DNA of 25,183 nucleotides from a virus, in the IMG/VR virus record IMGVR_UViG_3300044974_000105, positions 1-25,183 of that record, one strand, 5' to 3'. Below the pieces are notes generated by a model that saw only the letters and a program-made list of their open reading frames with translations, ran no database searches and was not told where the DNA came from. This document shows positions 15,335 through 19,869 of this stretch, one piece after another (within the stretch, counting starts at the first letter, position 1; each line of letters starts with the position of its first letter). Made by a program: the position numbers and the translations under genes.

Positions 15335-15690
15335 TGAACATAGCAAAATTAAAATACGAAAACAAAGAAACTGCAATAGCTGACTTATTAGCTAAGAAAG
15401 TTTATATTGAAGTAGAAAACATTGACAAAGAAATTACTTTAGCATACGGACAAGGAATCCAAGCAATAGTAGAGATAGGTTTAATCGTTTTAGAAAATGG
15501 TACTTACGATGCAGACTTTAACGAAATAACTGCACCTGTTTATGCTGATGGATATCATTACGATGTTATGAGTGAAAACGAAATTAAGTTTGATAACTCT
15601 ATTGAGGTTAAAAATCCTAAACATACTTTTGCAGGATATGAAGTAGTTACTGATTCTATATATCCTTTTGATAAAATAATCAATGAGTAG
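15334..15690 (+). CDS. Small fiber-associated protein, 118 aa (unknown)
   Basis: 118 aa, soluble and acidic, starting in a TAATG overlap with the fiber gene and overlapping the membrane protein gene by 8 bases. It begins with a short helix (MNIAKLKYENKETAIADLLA), then strands such as 'KEITLAYGQGIQAIVEIGLI', 'DGYHYDVMSENEIKFDN' and 'HTFAGYEVVTDSIYPFDKII'. It is placed like a fiber chaperone or small tail-associated protein. I do not recognise a family, so function is left open. Confidence 0.5.
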   Translation: MNIAKLKYENKETAIADLLAKKVYIEVENIDKEITLAYGQGIQAIVEIGLIVLENGTYDADFNEITAPVYADGYHYDVMSENEIKFDNSIEVKNPKHTFAGYEVVTDSIYPFDKIINE

Positions 15691-15883
15691 TAAAGAAAAA
15701 ATAGACTTATTCCTTAACAAGTGGGTAAGTCGTAAACTAACTGTTTTTGTTGTAGCATCTGTAGGTTTATTCTCAGGTGTTATAACTTCTACTGATTGGG
15801 TTATTATTGGAACTTCTTACATAACTATTGAGGGAGTTACAAATATTGTGGAACGTTTAATGAAAGCTAAAAATGTCAATTAA
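15683..15883 (+). CDS. Small membrane protein, holin candidate 1
   Basis: 66 aa. A short charged N-terminus (MSSKEKIDLFLNKWVSRK) is followed by a hydrophobic segment at about 19-35 (LTVFVVASVGLFSGVITS), a possible second segment at about 39-52, and a charged C-terminus (NIVERLMKAKNVN). Size, topology and position directly before a second small membrane protein and an endolysin-type amidase fit a holin, which makes pores in the inner membrane for lysis. Holins have little sequence conservation, so this is inferred from context. Confidence 0.55.
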   Translation: MSSKEKIDLFLNKWVSRKLTVFVVASVGLFSGVITSTDWVIIGTSYITIEGVTNIVERLMKAKNVN

Positions 15884-16040
15884 CGATTTGAAACTATACG
15901 GGTTAAATTCACTTGCGATGGCAGTTAGCTTTTCGAATGTAGAGGCTACGCTTAAAATATTCTTATTGTGTGTTTCTATTATTTATACGATAATGAAAAC
16001 TATTGAATTGGTAAATAAAAAAAATGATGAGAGAGATTAA
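15873..16040 (+). CDS. Small membrane protein, holin/antiholin candidate 2
   Basis: 55 aa, opening MSINDLKLYGLNSLAMAVSF, with hydrophobic stretches at about 11-21 and 26-42 (TLKIFLLCVSIIYTIMK) and a charged end (VNKKNDERD). It overlaps the first holin candidate by 11 bases and the amidase start by 17 bases, so it belongs to the lysis cassette. The first hydrophobic stretch is weak, so topology is one or two segments. Holin, antiholin or second pore component are all possible. Confidence 0.6.
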   Translation: MSINDLKLYGLNSLAMAVSFSNVEATLKIFLLCVSIIYTIMKTIELVNKKNDERD

Positions 16041-16437
16041 ATATATCGTAATTCATTGTACTGCTTGTCAACCAAATACTAAAAAAGAAGCTATTTTAAA
16101 TTATTGGAAAAATACTTTAAAGTGGAAAACTGTAGGTTATCATCGTTTGATTGATGCAAATGGTGTTGTTCACGAACTTGCAAAATACGAACAAGTAACA
16201 AACGGTGTTAAAGGTTACAACTCGCAATCAATACATTTTAGTTACATTGGTGGAATAGATGAAGCAGGTAGACCAAAAGATACACGTACAATAAAACAAA
16301 AAGAAAGTTTATTATATTTAATCAAACAAGCTAAAAAACAATTTCCTAACGCTATTGTTCAAGGTCATAAAGATTTTAAAGGCGTAGTTAAAGCTTGTCC
16401 AAGTTTTGATGCTAAAAGCGAATATAAAGACATTTAA
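16024..16437 (+). CDS. Endolysin: N-acetylmuramoyl-L-alanine amidase (Amidase_2 type)
   Basis: 137 aa. The protein begins 'MMREIKYIVIHCTACQPNTK'; H11 corresponds to the first zinc ligand in this fold. 'TVGYHRLIDANGVVHEL' (36-52) holds Y39 and H40, and 'VQGHKDFKGVVKACPSFD' (112-129) holds H115 and C125, the likely other ligands, with K123 near the active site. This is the T7 lysozyme/amidase arrangement (HxCT, GYH, GH-x-D, KxCPxFD). The enzyme cuts the amide between N-acetylmuramic acid and L-alanine in peptidoglycan. There is no signal peptide, so release depends on the holin. ATGATG gives two possible starts (16024 and 16027). A spanin candidate follows after 11 bases. Confidence 0.9.
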   Translation: MMREIKYIVIHCTACQPNTKKEAILNYWKNTLKWKTVGYHRLIDANGVVHELAKYEQVTNGVKGYNSQSIHFSYIGGIDEAGRPKDTRTIKQKESLLYLIKQAKKQFPNAIVQGHKDFKGVVKACPSFDAKSEYKDI

Positions 16438-16448
16438 GACACTTTTAT

Positions 16449-16901
16449 ATGAAAATAGTATATTTACTTATCTTATTAATTTTAACGTCTTGTGGTTCAC
16501 GTAAAGTAGAAATTACAAAACAAGAAAAACAAGTTGAAACAAATATTGTAGAAACTAAAACTACAACTGATAGTTCTAACGTAGAAATTAAATTTAATTA
16601 TGAATTAAATACTTTTACAGTAGAAGCTAAAGATAATTTAAAACCATTTACTTATAATGGTAAAACGTATTTTAACGTTGTTTTAAGACACGAAAACAAA
16701 AAAGATAATAGTTTATATAAAAAAGATATTAAAGTTGTTAAAAACGAAGCTAAACAATCAAATATCAAATATAAAGAAGTAATTAAAGAAAAAAAAGTAC
16801 AAAGAGATAATTATAATATAAAGTATTTTATATTTTTATTTATTATATTAATTTTAATTATATATTATTTAATTAAAAAGTATTTTAAAATAGTTATTTA
16901 A
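16449..16901 (+). CDS. Predicted unimolecular spanin (lipoprotein with C-terminal membrane anchor)
   Basis: 150 aa. The N-terminus is a lipoprotein signal: basic start, hydrophobic core and lipobox LTSC (residues 12-15; C15 would be acylated after cleavage). After C15 there is no acidic patch, so I expect it in the periplasmic leaflet of the outer membrane. Residues about 16-120 are a polar, Lys/Glu/Thr-rich periplasmic region. Residues about 126-141 (YFIFLFIILILIIYYLIK) form a strong C-terminal transmembrane helix, then a basic tail. An outer-membrane lipid anchor and an inner-membrane helix in one chain, next to the endolysin, is the architecture of T1 gp11-type u-spanins, which fuse the two membranes at the end of lysis. 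An ordinary membrane-anchored lipoprotein remains possible. Confidence 0.65.
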   Translation: MKIVYLLILLILTSCGSRKVEITKQEKQVETNIVETKTTTDSSNVEIKFNYELNTFTVEAKDNLKPFTYNGKTYFNVVLRHENKKDNSLYKKDIKVVKNEAKQSNIKYKEVIKEKKVQRDNYNIKYFIFLFIILILIIYYLIKKYFKIVI

Positions 16902-17133: not shown

Positions 17134-17508
17134 ATGAAAATCAAACGTTCAACTTTAGTTAAAAACTTAGATACTGTATTTTCGCAGTACATACGTTTGC
17201 GTTATGCTAAAGATGAAATAGCTGAATGCGTTACTTGTGGTAAAAAAGACCATTATAAAAAACTACAATGCGGCCACTTTCAATCACGTAGGCATTATTC
17301 AACACGTTGGGACGAAGACAACGTAGGTGTTCAATGTTATGGTTGTAATATTTCAAATCAAGGTCAACAGTTTTTATTTGCTAAATATTTGGGTTTAGAT
17401 AAAGCTGAGGAAATGGTTTTAAAATCAAGACAAATTGTTAAATTCACTGATGATGATTTGCAAGATATGATACAACACTATAAAAATAAATTAAAAGAAT
17501 TTCTATAA
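17134..17508 (+). CDS. ninG: NinG/Rap-type recombination nuclease
   Basis: 124 aa. The zinc/Cys pattern of the NinG family is clear: C32-x-x-C35 ('CVTCGKKDH'), C46-G-H48 ('LQCGHFQSRRHYSTRWDEDN', residues 44-63), and C68-x-x-C71-N72 ('VQCYGCNISNQG'). NinG (lambda Rap, for 'recombination adept') is a structure-specific nuclease that acts on branched DNA, including Holliday junctions and displacement loops, in phage recombination. Together with the downstream ERF annealase, SSB-like protein and exonuclease it indicates a phage recombination module. The gene is monocistronic here: a promoter is directly upstream and a terminator lies about 45 bases after the stop codon. Confidence 0.85.
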   Translation: MKIKRSTLVKNLDTVFSQYIRLRYAKDEIAECVTCGKKDHYKKLQCGHFQSRRHYSTRWDEDNVGVQCYGCNISNQGQQFLFAKYLGLDKAEEMVLKSRQIVKFTDDDLQDMIQHYKNKLKEFL

Positions 17509-18845: not shown

Positions 18846-19109
18846 ATGAACATTTTAGAAAAAGCAAACGAAATTGTAAACTTACGATCTGAAGAAAAAG
18901 AGCGTATGTACGGAGATTTTATTGAATCAATGAAAAAAACGGCAAGGATAGCTTCCGAATTTAGTAATAAAGAAATAACTGTAGTTGATGCTTATAATGT
19001 TTTAATAGCATTAAAATTTGCAAGACAATCTAATTCTCATAAAGAAGATAATTTATTGGATGCGGTAGCTTATATTGGTTCACTTAATAATTTATTAGAT
19101 AATGTATAA
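18846..19109 (+). CDS. DUF6378-like small helical protein, 87 aa
   Basis: 87 aa. It begins MNILEKANEIVNLRSEEKER, and the C-terminal half reads 'VVDAYNVLIALKFARQSNSH' then 'KEDNLLDAVAYIGSLNNLLD'. The pattern 'RSEEKeR.YG.F.eSm..ta', then 'DAY.vLiALK.aRqs..hkeDNllDavaY' matches the DUF6378-type family seen in many phages, which lacks an assigned function. It is the first gene of operon B and overlaps the thymidylate-synthase-fold gene start by 8 bases, so the two are translationally coupled. Association with nucleotide-metabolism genes is suggestive only. Confidence 0.75.
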   Translation: MNILEKANEIVNLRSEEKERMYGDFIESMKKTARIASEFSNKEITVVDAYNVLIALKFARQSNSHKEDNLLDAVAYIGSLNNLLDNV

Positions 19110-19869
19110 TTACGAAAAAAAATATAGAAAAATAATACAAGAAACAATAAAAAAAGGAGTTTATAAAGAGGACCGCACAGGCGTTGGCTGTTATTCTTTA
19201 TTTAATAAAAGCTTAGAAATTAATGTTTCAAAATATTTTCCTATTTTAACAGGAAGAAAAATGTTTGAAAAAACTTTTAAAACTGAATTTGAATGGTTTA
19301 TAAATGGAGAAACAAATATTAAAAGATTTAAAGATGCAGGTGTAAAAATATGGGATTCTTGGGCTGATGAAAACGGTAATTTAGGACCTGTATATGGTCA
19401 TCAATTATTAAATTTTAATAGTAATGGTTATAATCAATTAAATAGCTTAATAAACAGTATTAAAACAAATCCAAATAGCCGAAGACATATTATTTCTTTA
19501 TGGAATCCATTACAATTAAAAGAAATGAAATTGCCCCCTTGTTATTTATACTTTCAATTTTTTGTAGAAAATAAAAAATTAAATATGTTTGTATTACAAA
19601 GGTCAGGTGATTTAATAGCGGGAATACCTTATGATATTGCATTATTTACAATTTTTTTATTATATATTTCTGAAAAAACAGGTTATAAAGCGAATAAATT
19701 AAGTTTAAATATTATTGATGCACATATTTATAAAAATCAATTAGAAGTTGCAGATGAATATTTAAAAAGAAGTATATTAATTTTGCCAACTTATAAATAC
19801 AAAAACGAACAATTAGAAATTATTAATTATAATTGTAATAGTTTTATTAAAATACCAATTGCCGTATAA
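19102..19869 (+). CDS. Thymidylate-synthase-fold dCMP (hydroxy)methylase candidate
   Basis: 255 aa, complete. Family residues are in order: R25 in 'EDRTGVG', E62/W65 ('TEFEWFINGETNIKRF'), 'IWDSWADENGNLGPVYGHQL' (83-102, Y98), R127/R128 ('SRRHIISLWNP'), catalytic C147 ('LPPCYLYFQF'), R167/S168/D170 ('QRSGDLIAGIPYD'), 'DAHIY' (206-210) and the C-terminal IPIAV that closes over folate. Two deviations concern pyrimidine recognition. The Asn that binds the uracil ring in thymidylate synthase (E. coli N177) is D178 here, and the His after the catalytic Cys (E. coli H147) is Y148. Cys-to-Asp spacing is 31, as in T4 dCMP hydroxymethylase (C148/D179). Substrate is therefore likely dCMP, giving methyl- or hydroxymethyl-dCMP; ordinary dTMP synthesis is the alternative. 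The gene is coupled to both neighbours. Confidence 0.8.
   Translation: MYNYEKKYRKIIQETIKKGVYKEDRTGVGCYSLFNKSLEINVSKYFPILTGRKMFEKTFKTEFEWFINGETNIKRFKDAGVKIWDSWADENGNLGPVYGHQLLNFNSNGYNQLNSLINSIKTNPNSRRHIISLWNPLQLKEMKLPPCYLYFQFFVENKKLNMFVLQRSGDLIAGIPYDIALFTIFLLYISEKTGYKANKLSLNIIDAHIYKNQLEVADEYLKRSILILPTYKYKNEQLEIINYNCNSFIKIPIAV

What the first reader, a model, noticed from the sequence alone, without database searches (positions are those of the whole stretch)
16449..16901. Predicted u-spanin: lipoprotein signal plus C-terminal membrane helix next to the endolysin
Seen: lipobox LTSC at residues 12-15 and a 16-residue hydrophobic helix near the C-terminus in one 150-aa chain, 11 bases after the amidase gene. 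Known: T1 gp11 is the model unimolecular spanin with exactly this two-membrane topology. Single-gene spanins outside the T1-type group are less familiar to me, and this one has no acidic export signal after the lipid Cys, consistent with the inner leaflet of the outer membrane.
Basis: partly seen in the sequence, partly recalled or inferred. Interest (0 to 1): 0.5.

Follow-up and report, generated by a model that had tools for sequence, protein, structure and literature searches.

The report
Bacteroidetes phage single-protein outer-membrane breaker
This gene very probably makes the one-protein tool (a "u-spanin") with which a virus of Flavobacterium-like bacteria joins the cell's two membranes to burst out; such proteins were already predicted in related viruses, and comparing this family suggests how the protein folds: as one long hairpin with both membrane anchors at the same end.

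Summary
A 150-aa gene at 16449-16901 starts 11 bases after an Amidase_2 gene and encodes a lipobox (LTSC, Cys15) plus one C-terminal membrane helix. The u-spanin reading is well supported. The protein belongs to PHROG 5885 ("unknown function"), which also holds proteins of Flavobacterium phages FCL-2 and 11b and of Cellulophaga phages. Kongari 2018 lists FCL-2, 11b, phi12:1 and phi17:1 as u-spanin phages, so this is a new member of a known kind. In 34 of 39 family clusters the gene follows one of six Pfam families: five known wall hydrolases or DUF5675. No sequence relation to T1 gp11 was detected. Two things go beyond the finding. The residues after the lipid Cys are basic (Cxx[RK][RK] in 38 of 39 clusters), the opposite of the acidic surface-export signal of Bacteroidetes. 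And AlphaFold2, arm-length covariation (phylogenetic contrasts r 0.84) and charge pairing (antiparallel register i+j=137, z 5.5, best of 142 registers) agree on one long antiparallel beta-hairpin. Lipid anchor and membrane helix then sit at the same end, as expected of a zipped state that pulls the membranes together. Function itself was not tested here.

The parts
16449..16901 (+). u-spanin gene, 150 aa, member of PHROG 5885
   Evidence: (PHROG 5885 E 5.3e-12)
16449..16493 (+). lipoprotein signal peptide with lipobox LTSC; lipid-carrying Cys15 at 16491-16493
   Evidence: Cys invariant in alignment A2 of 38 sequences
16494..16508 (+). residues +2 to +6 (GSRKV): conserved basic stretch instead of an acidic surface-export signal
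16503..16628 (+). N-arm of the predicted beta-hairpin (residues 19-60)
   Evidence: AlphaFold2 strands 19-48 and 51-60; register i+j=137
16629..16676 (+). hairpin tip (residues 61-76), most conserved periplasmic part: D62..K65..GKTYFN (in other members PxDxxKxIxVxGKxYxN)
16677..16802 (+). C-arm of the predicted beta-hairpin (residues 77-118)
   Evidence: AlphaFold2 strands 77-86 and 89-118
16812..16895 (+). C-terminal inner-membrane helix (residues 122-149; hydrophobic core 124-142)
16024..16437 (+). endolysin, Amidase_2 (N-acetylmuramoyl-L-alanine amidase), no hydrophobic membrane segment found
15873..16040 (+). 55-aa small membrane protein, holin/antiholin candidate
   Evidence: best family match phrog_10649, E 0.12, unknown function, none in Pfam
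15683..15883 (+). 66-aa small membrane protein, holin/antiholin candidate; relatives precede u-spanins with four different kinds of endolysin-slot gene
   Evidence: best family match phrog_34488, E 0.093, unknown function, none in Pfam

Best explanation
The gene encodes a unimolecular spanin, the last step of lysis in a phage of a Flavobacteriaceae-like host. Read from the sequence: a lipoprotein signal, a region of 106 residues (16-121) predicted periplasmic, and one C-terminal membrane helix, in a cassette of two small membrane proteins, an amidase and this gene. Inferred: after Sec export Cys15 is lipidated and stays in the inner leaflet of the outer membrane (no LES, basic +4/+5 residues), while the C-terminal helix stays in the inner membrane, so one chain is threaded through the peptidoglycan. 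When the amidase removes the wall, the two arms (residues 19-60 and 77-118) zip into one antiparallel beta-hairpin from the tip (61-76) to the base. That brings the lipid anchor and the membrane helix to the same place, pulls the outer membrane onto the inner one and fuses or breaks them. My estimates: u-spanin role 0.9; hairpin as the folded state 0.8; zippering as the driving motion 0.5.
For: Topology. Family: (FCL-2, 11b, Cellulophaga phi17:1 and phi18:2 in the same PHROG); published listing of related phages. Cassette: in 34 of 39 clusters (one representative each) a Pfam-recognised gene lies upstream: Amidase_2 7, Phage_lysozyme 15, DUF5675 5, Peptidase_M15_4 4, GH19 2, Amidase_3 1. It is the next gene in 31 of the 34 (one intervening gene in L069, two in FCL-2, a 180-base gap with a small ORF in L087). 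A prophage copy outside the 39 follows a Muramidase gene (L126). Anchor signal: 39 of 39 clusters have no D/E at +2..+6 and 38 of 39 have Cxx[RK][RK]; of 30 lipoproteins that I predicted in 400 kb of one Aestuariibaculum genome, 21 have D/E there and 0 have Cxx[RK][RK]. Among 22 clusters that never match the scan pattern containing this motif, 21 keep it. Hairpin: AlphaFold2 strand ends 19-48/89-118 and 51-60/77-86 each sum to 137; arm lengths covary over 41 sequences, raw r 0.935, contrasts r 0.839 with slope 1.06, 13 of 15 changing contrasts in the same direction, 0 of 1000 tip permutations; 131 opposite- versus 55 like-charge pairs in that register over 18 representatives under 60% identity; own arms match better than swapped arms, z 5.45, best of 142 registers, next 2.75.
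Against: I found no lysis, lipidation or localisation data for the family. Two of 39 clusters (L066, L091; L102 read as a longer member of the L091 cluster) show no endolysin nearby. AlphaFold2 pTM is only 0.29, and strand partners were inferred from strand ends, not read from coordinates. In one search some registers with fewer pairs have a higher opposite/like ratio (antiparallel offsets +14 and +21; parallel shifts 21, 22, 25, 28, 39). The hydropathy match is broad, highest at offsets -11 and -12 (z 4.6, 4.3) rather than at -10 (3.8), and hydropathy shows no clear alternation along either arm at lag 2. Without the two extreme-length sequences the contrast r falls to 0.672, without four to 0.564; with a stricter helix-start rule it is 0.780. 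Matched arms could also arise if each arm spans one half of the periplasm. T1 gp11 gave no usable model (pLDDT 50, 7 sequences), so the hairpin cannot be extended to T1. Of the nearest cultured phages by portal protein (P12024S/L, 35.9%), P12024S gave no profile hit.
Confidence: 0.85

Rival explanations
1. It is a u-spanin, but the arms never pair within one molecule: the tip sits at the peptidoglycan and each arm spans one half of the periplasm as an extended or oligomeric beta structure, so both lengths scale with the host's periplasm.
For: Arm lengths would also covary. Many of Foldseek's best PDB hits are long-stemmed or beta-barrel proteins (phage lower collar, lysenin, CDTb, aerolysin), TM 0.31 or less in the 50 rows listed. 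A review passage states that u-spanins must oligomerise (PMC7830690).
Against: Does not predict that each protein's own two arms are charge-matched in one antiparallel register better than arms taken from relatives.
Confidence: 0.2
2. It is a lipoprotein with another role, such as superinfection exclusion or anchoring of a lysis protein, that merely sits beside the endolysin.
For: I found no functional test; PHROG 5885 is 'unknown function'; two clusters lack an endolysin neighbour.
Against: The place after the endolysin-slot gene is kept while that gene is exchanged among different Pfam families; lipid anchor, basic motif and C-terminal hydrophobic stretch are kept at low identity.
Confidence: 0.07
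3. It is the outer-membrane half of a two-component spanin whose partner lies elsewhere.
For: Weak PHROG matches to spanin families (phrog_6073 E 0.068, phrog_3268 E 0.43, phrog_812 E 1.0).
Against: It carries its own C-terminal membrane helix, and the pattern scan found no other credible lipoprotein gene among ORFs of at least 50 aa in the window; shorter or embedded ORFs were not examined.
Confidence: 0.03

Closest known systems
PHROG 5885 proteins of Flavobacterium phages FCL-2 (AIX11874) and 11b (PHG11b_49) and Cellulophaga phages phi12:1 / phi17:1 / phi18:2
   Same: Same topology, SCG[ST]RK start, same tip motif, after an endolysin-type gene; FCL-2, 11b, phi17:1 and phi18:2 proteins match the same PHROG (phi12:1 not scanned). 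FCL-2, 11b, phi12:1 and phi17:1 are named in Kongari 2018 Table 5; that the table means these proteins is inferred. phi18:2 is not in the table passage seen.
   Different: 34-41% identical to the window protein. Kongari keeps FCL-2, 11b and the phi12:1 group as three separate families; here they fall together. Arm lengths differ (42/31 in FCL-2, 52/42 in phi18:2, 56/49 in the window).
T1 gp11 (YP_003934), the prototype u-spanin
   Same: Lipobox, C-terminal membrane helix, directly after the endolysin gene; periplasmic domain described as mainly beta (PMC6139136).
   Different: No detectable sequence relation (hhalign probability 5.9 and 2.6, lipobox only); neutral residues after Cys (CSTAS); no usable AlphaFold2 model.
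Lambda Rz/Rz1 two-component spanin (PMC6139136 passages)
   Same: Same proposed job: fusion of inner and outer membrane after wall removal.
   Different: Two proteins and coiled coils; here one protein and a predicted beta-hairpin.

Membership tests
u-spanin (class) | N-terminal outer-membrane lipoprotein signal | tested here: met
   LTSC, Cys15; lipidation itself not testable here
u-spanin (class) | C-terminal transmembrane helix in the same chain | tested here: met
   124-142 by hydropathy, helix 122-149 in the model
[quoted passage not shown]
   After Amidase_2, preceded by two small membrane genes; upstream endolysin-slot gene in 34 of 39 clusters, none nearby in 2. Holin identity is inferred.
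u-spanin (class) | Beta-rich periplasmic domain | tested here: met
   Mostly strand between residues 19 and 118 in the model, mean pLDDT 77, pTM 0.29
u-spanin (class) | No periplasmic cysteine (none in 58 surveyed, PMC6139136) | tested here: met
   Window: met (Cys15 only). Family: not universal, 10 of 38 full-length clusters carry one
u-spanin (class) | Restores lysis in a spanin-negative host; anchored in both membranes | not testable with these tools
   needs an experiment
T1 gp11 sequence family | At least 40% identity over 40% of the periplasmic domain to members | tested here: not met
   No alignment beyond the lipobox with T1 gp11 or a 7-sequence T1 alignment
PHROG 5885 | Significant match to the profile over most of its length | tested here: met
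   E 5.3e-12, residues 4-147 on profile 5-125 of 127
Bacteroidetes surface lipoprotein (LES) | Acidic LES such as K-(D/E)2, SDDFE or SDDDD after the lipid Cys | tested here: not met
   GSRKV; 0 of 39 clusters has an acidic residue at +2..+6; LES as in PMC5080379 passages

The most novel reading that the evidence does not exclude
Bacteroidetes-phage u-spanins are beta-hairpin zipper fusogens. One chain anchored in both membranes folds, once the wall is gone, into a single two-stranded antiparallel hairpin of about 42 residues per arm, whose base carries both anchors. Selection keeps the two arms equal in length change and charge-matched in one register. A conserved basic stretch after the lipid Cys keeps the protein out of the host's surface-export pathway. 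What I read from the searches showed no register-level architecture for any u-spanin, so this may be a first, and a beta counterpart of viral fusion hairpins.
Probability: 0.5. Interest if true: 0.65.

Novelty: new member of a known kind. Interest (0 to 1): 0.45.

Why it matters
How u-spanins work was open in 2018: Kongari says there was no physiological or biochemical data on it and offers a general beta-collapse idea; a J Virol 2018 paper on T1 gp11 exists but was not held. A predicted register gives concrete residues to cross-link, and the basic motif gives a sorting prediction for lipoproteins in Bacteroidetes. The family ties together phages listed under separate u-spanin families and suggests a function for PHROG 5885. 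Because the gene in the endolysin slot is exchanged while the u-spanin stays, the u-spanin can flag unrecognised lysis enzymes such as DUF5675.

Tried and rejected
One search was a failed first attempt at the phylogenetic contrasts. A looser motif mis-anchored many of its 40 rows (for example N-arm 20 in L087, C-arm 81 in L048) and gave a contrast r of -0.22. I discarded it and repeated with the strict tip motif plus three hand-set rows (L126, L174, L175). Rows dropped: L054 (truncated), L127 and L176 (no clear tip).

Most listed matches cover only the signal peptide and the start after Cys. Among those listed, matches over at least 140 profile positions are G001, G257 and G101 at E below 1e-10, and G274 at 5e-4. 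From 25 of these loci (L125-L149) I scanned nine signal-only ones, picked because they showed a basic pattern after a Cys: 8 are Glucosaminidase-LysM and 1 NlpC/P60. The other signal-only ones were not scanned. A draw of 395 genomes of the order gave 5 at E 1e-7 or better, two of them already known.

PDB sequence search found nothing at E below 0.3. In BFVD the best Foldseek hit is a phage 'Lipoprotein' (E 2.6e-5, TM 0.45) and the phi17:1 homologue has E 0.045. Many of the best PDB hits are long-stemmed or barrel-forming proteins, TM 0.31 or less in the 50 rows listed; I read this as resemblance, not kinship. RAP44 and phi10:1 proteins of u-spanin topology also start basic (CRTRKK, CRAKK), but their profile match is mostly signal peptide, so I do not merge them with the family. 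A scan of viral contigs with L126 found no relative; with L114 it found L114 itself and three already held.

Literature: 'u-spanin'+'AlphaFold' 5 papers, 'unimolecular spanin'+'hairpin' 6 papers. From these I read passages of PMC9636201, PMC9902359 and PMC7830690, and sections 8 and 13 plus passages of PMC6139136; the others I saw as listings only. None of what I read gives a register or a model for a u-spanin. [quoted passage not shown] 'spanin'+'lipoprotein export signal' returned 0 papers. Of PMC8776804, PMC12596118, PMC5080379, PMC10671443 and PMC9229204 I read passages only.

Full report
WHAT IS THERE. The window is a 25,183-base IMG/VR virus record with 30% G+C. Its portal protein is nearest, at 35.9%, to Nonlabens phages P12024S/L. 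ORF 16449-16901 (+) encodes 150 aa with lipobox LTSC (Cys15) and a C-terminal hydrophobic segment at 124-142, 11 bases after an Amidase_2 gene. Two small membrane proteins of 66 and 55 aa precede the amidase.

FAMILY. The protein matches PHROG 5885 (unknown function) at E 5.3e-12 over nearly its whole length. The same PHROG takes in Flavobacterium phage FCL-2 AIX11874 (7.7e-71), phage 11b PHG11b_49 (1.6e-9) and Cellulophaga phi18:2 and phi17:1 proteins (6.8e-54, 2.1e-53). tblastn at E up to 1 finds 88 phage records, 80 Flavobacterium and 8 Cellulophaga, none with 80% coverage; the best has E 6e-4, and the listed Cellulophaga and 11b hits lie between 6e-3 and 6e-2. IMG/VR scans gave 23 loci and then the best 80 of 157 confirmed relatives. 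I worked with 90 rows (window, those 80, five phages, one genome locus and L112-L114), which collapse to 39 clusters at 90% identity.

ANCHORS. Of the 89 rows besides the window, 88 show a lipobox pattern; L030 has a weak QTGC. Of the 86 with a complete frame, 79 pass the hydropathy threshold for a later membrane segment; seven (L055, L058-L061, L063, L065) end in a Trp-rich hydrophobic stretch below it.

LYSIS CASSETTE. I looked at the gene upstream of one representative per cluster. Pfam names it in 34 of 39: Amidase_2 in 7, Phage_lysozyme in 15, DUF5675 in 5, Peptidase_M15_4 in 4, GH19 in 2, Amidase_3 in 1. In 31 of these it is the next gene. L069 has one gene between, FCL-2 two, and L087 a 180-base gap with a small ORF. 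In three clusters (L051, L059, L068) the contig keeps only the end of the upstream gene, which looks like amidase or lysozyme by eye. Two clusters (L066, L091) have no endolysin nearby. A prophage copy outside the 39 follows a Muramidase gene, another a GH19 gene (L126, L127); the neighbours of L174-L176 were not examined. A small membrane protein with the signature SRK..VF...GLF....TS.DWVII, like the window's 66-aa gene, precedes at least 15 clusters by eye, with Amidase_2, DUF5675, lysozyme or M15 in the endolysin slot. The gene in that slot is exchanged while its neighbours stay, which is hard to explain unless the PHROG 5885 protein acts in lysis.

SORTING SIGNAL. Surface lipoproteins of Bacteroidetes carry an acidic signal after the lipid Cys (K-(D/E)2, SDDFE, SDDDD; PMC5080379, passages read). 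In this family 39 of 39 clusters have no acid at +2..+6 and 38 of 39 have Cxx[RK][RK]. Of 30 lipoproteins that I predicted by my own rule in 400 kb of one Aestuariibaculum genome, 21 have at least one acid there and none has Cxx[RK][RK]. One of the two IMG/VR scan patterns contained the motif; among the 22 clusters whose members never match that pattern, 21 keep it. Chromosomal lipoproteins that share this start are peptidoglycan hydrolases in the nine I scanned, which were picked for the basic start. That fits a periplasm-facing position but does not prove it. Two other Bacteroidetes phage proteins of u-spanin topology (RAP44, phi10:1) also start basic. PMC5080379 reports no highly conserved residues in the periplasm-facing lipoproteins of its species, so the conserved basic stretch is unexpected; whether it acts as a signal is inference.

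FOLD. AlphaFold2 with 38 sequences (mean pLDDT 77, pTM 0.29) gives strands 19-48, 51-60, 77-86 and 89-118, two short strands in 61-76, and a helix 122-149. The ends 19+118, 48+89, 51+86 and 60+77 all sum to 137, as in one antiparallel hairpin with its tip at 61-76. I tested this without the model in two ways. Arm lengths: from the lipid Cys to the tip and from the tip to the membrane helix, over 41 sequences (38 clusters and three prophage copies), raw r 0.935, slope 1.01, SD of the difference 1.85 against 9.93 for the sum; phylogenetic contrasts r 0.839, slope 1.06, 13 of 15 changing contrasts in the same direction, 0 of 1000 tip permutations. With a stricter helix-start rule r is 0.780 and 12 of 15; without FCL-2 and L175 0.672; without four sequences 0.564. 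An earlier run with mis-anchored rows gave -0.22 and was discarded. A fixed-span tether would predict a negative relation. Charges: over 18 representatives under 60% identity, register i+j=137 has 131 opposite and 55 like pairs, with 17 of 18 representatives in favour, z -7.4 against within-sequence shuffles and the strongest of 25 offsets. Pairing each N-arm with its own C-arm beats arms swapped between members by z 5.45 (0 of 1000), the best of 142 antiparallel and parallel registers; the next is 2.75. Against this: some registers with fewer pairs have higher opposite/like ratios, the hydropathy match is broad and highest at offsets -11 and -12, and hydropathy shows no clear lag-2 alternation along the arms. 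The tests and the model share the same sequences, so they are not fully independent.

MECHANISM. If the hairpin is the folded state, lipid anchor and membrane helix lie at the same end. A chain anchored in two membranes about a periplasm apart cannot be in that state until wall and spacing allow it, so zippering from tip to base would pull the membranes together. [quoted passage not shown] I saw no register evidence for a u-spanin in what I read from the searches. Ten of 38 full-length clusters have one periplasmic cysteine, seven in or within about five residues of the tip and three (L066, L087, L091) about a dozen residues before it, unlike the 58 u-spanins Kongari surveyed; some members may form disulphide dimers.

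NOVELTY. Kongari 2018 Table 5 names FCL-2, 11b, phi12:1, phi17:1 and phi18:1 as u-spanin phages. Bartlau 2021 annotates u-spanins in Cellulophaga phages (PMC8776804, passage; author name recalled). A 2025 survey says Bacteroidetes phages exclusively use them (PMC12596118, passage). The window protein is therefore a new member of a known kind; no sequence homology to T1 gp11 was detected. What may be new is the hairpin evidence and the basic post-lipid stretch.

Noticed in passing
L054:3611-3991, L067:3254-3634, L082:41-421, L090:3609-3992, L100:3609-3989: DUF5675 (PF18925, unknown function) occupies the endolysin slot directly before the u-spanin in five clusters, with weak sub-threshold Tlde1-domain matches in two (E 0.0085, 0.0026). 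It is probably a peptidoglycan-cleaving endolysin. A search found two papers that mention the domain, as an annotation only in the passages read.
   Followed up: partly
L066:53, L067:65, L068:64, L069:57, L077:65, L087:58, L091:53, L099:71, L100:71, L113:63 (protein residue numbers): Ten of 38 full-length u-spanin clusters have a single periplasmic cysteine, seven in or next to the hairpin tip and three a dozen residues before it, although the 58 u-spanins of PMC6139136 were reported to lack one.
   Followed up: no
L173:1212-1787 (-) RAP44; L170:758-1228 phi10:1: Two further Bacteroidetes phage proteins with u-spanin topology begin with basic residues after the lipid Cys (CRTRKK, CRAKK); in RAP44 the gene lies between holin and endolysin.
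   Followed up: partly
L066:3983-4447 and L102:3983-4465: A lineage with a full u-spanin but no endolysin gene nearby and DNA methylase-like genes around it (methylase by eye).
   Followed up: no
L138, L141, L146, L147, L149, L144, L140, L139, L134: Nine chromosomal flavobacterial peptidoglycan hydrolases (Glucosaminidase-LysM, NlpC/P60), picked for it, carry the same kind of basic post-lipid start as the u-spanins; possibly a periplasmic retention signature.
   Followed up: partly
window 19102-19869 and 17134-17508: The phage carries a thymidylate synthase gene and a NinG/Rap-like endonuclease gene downstream of the lysis cassette.
   Followed up: no
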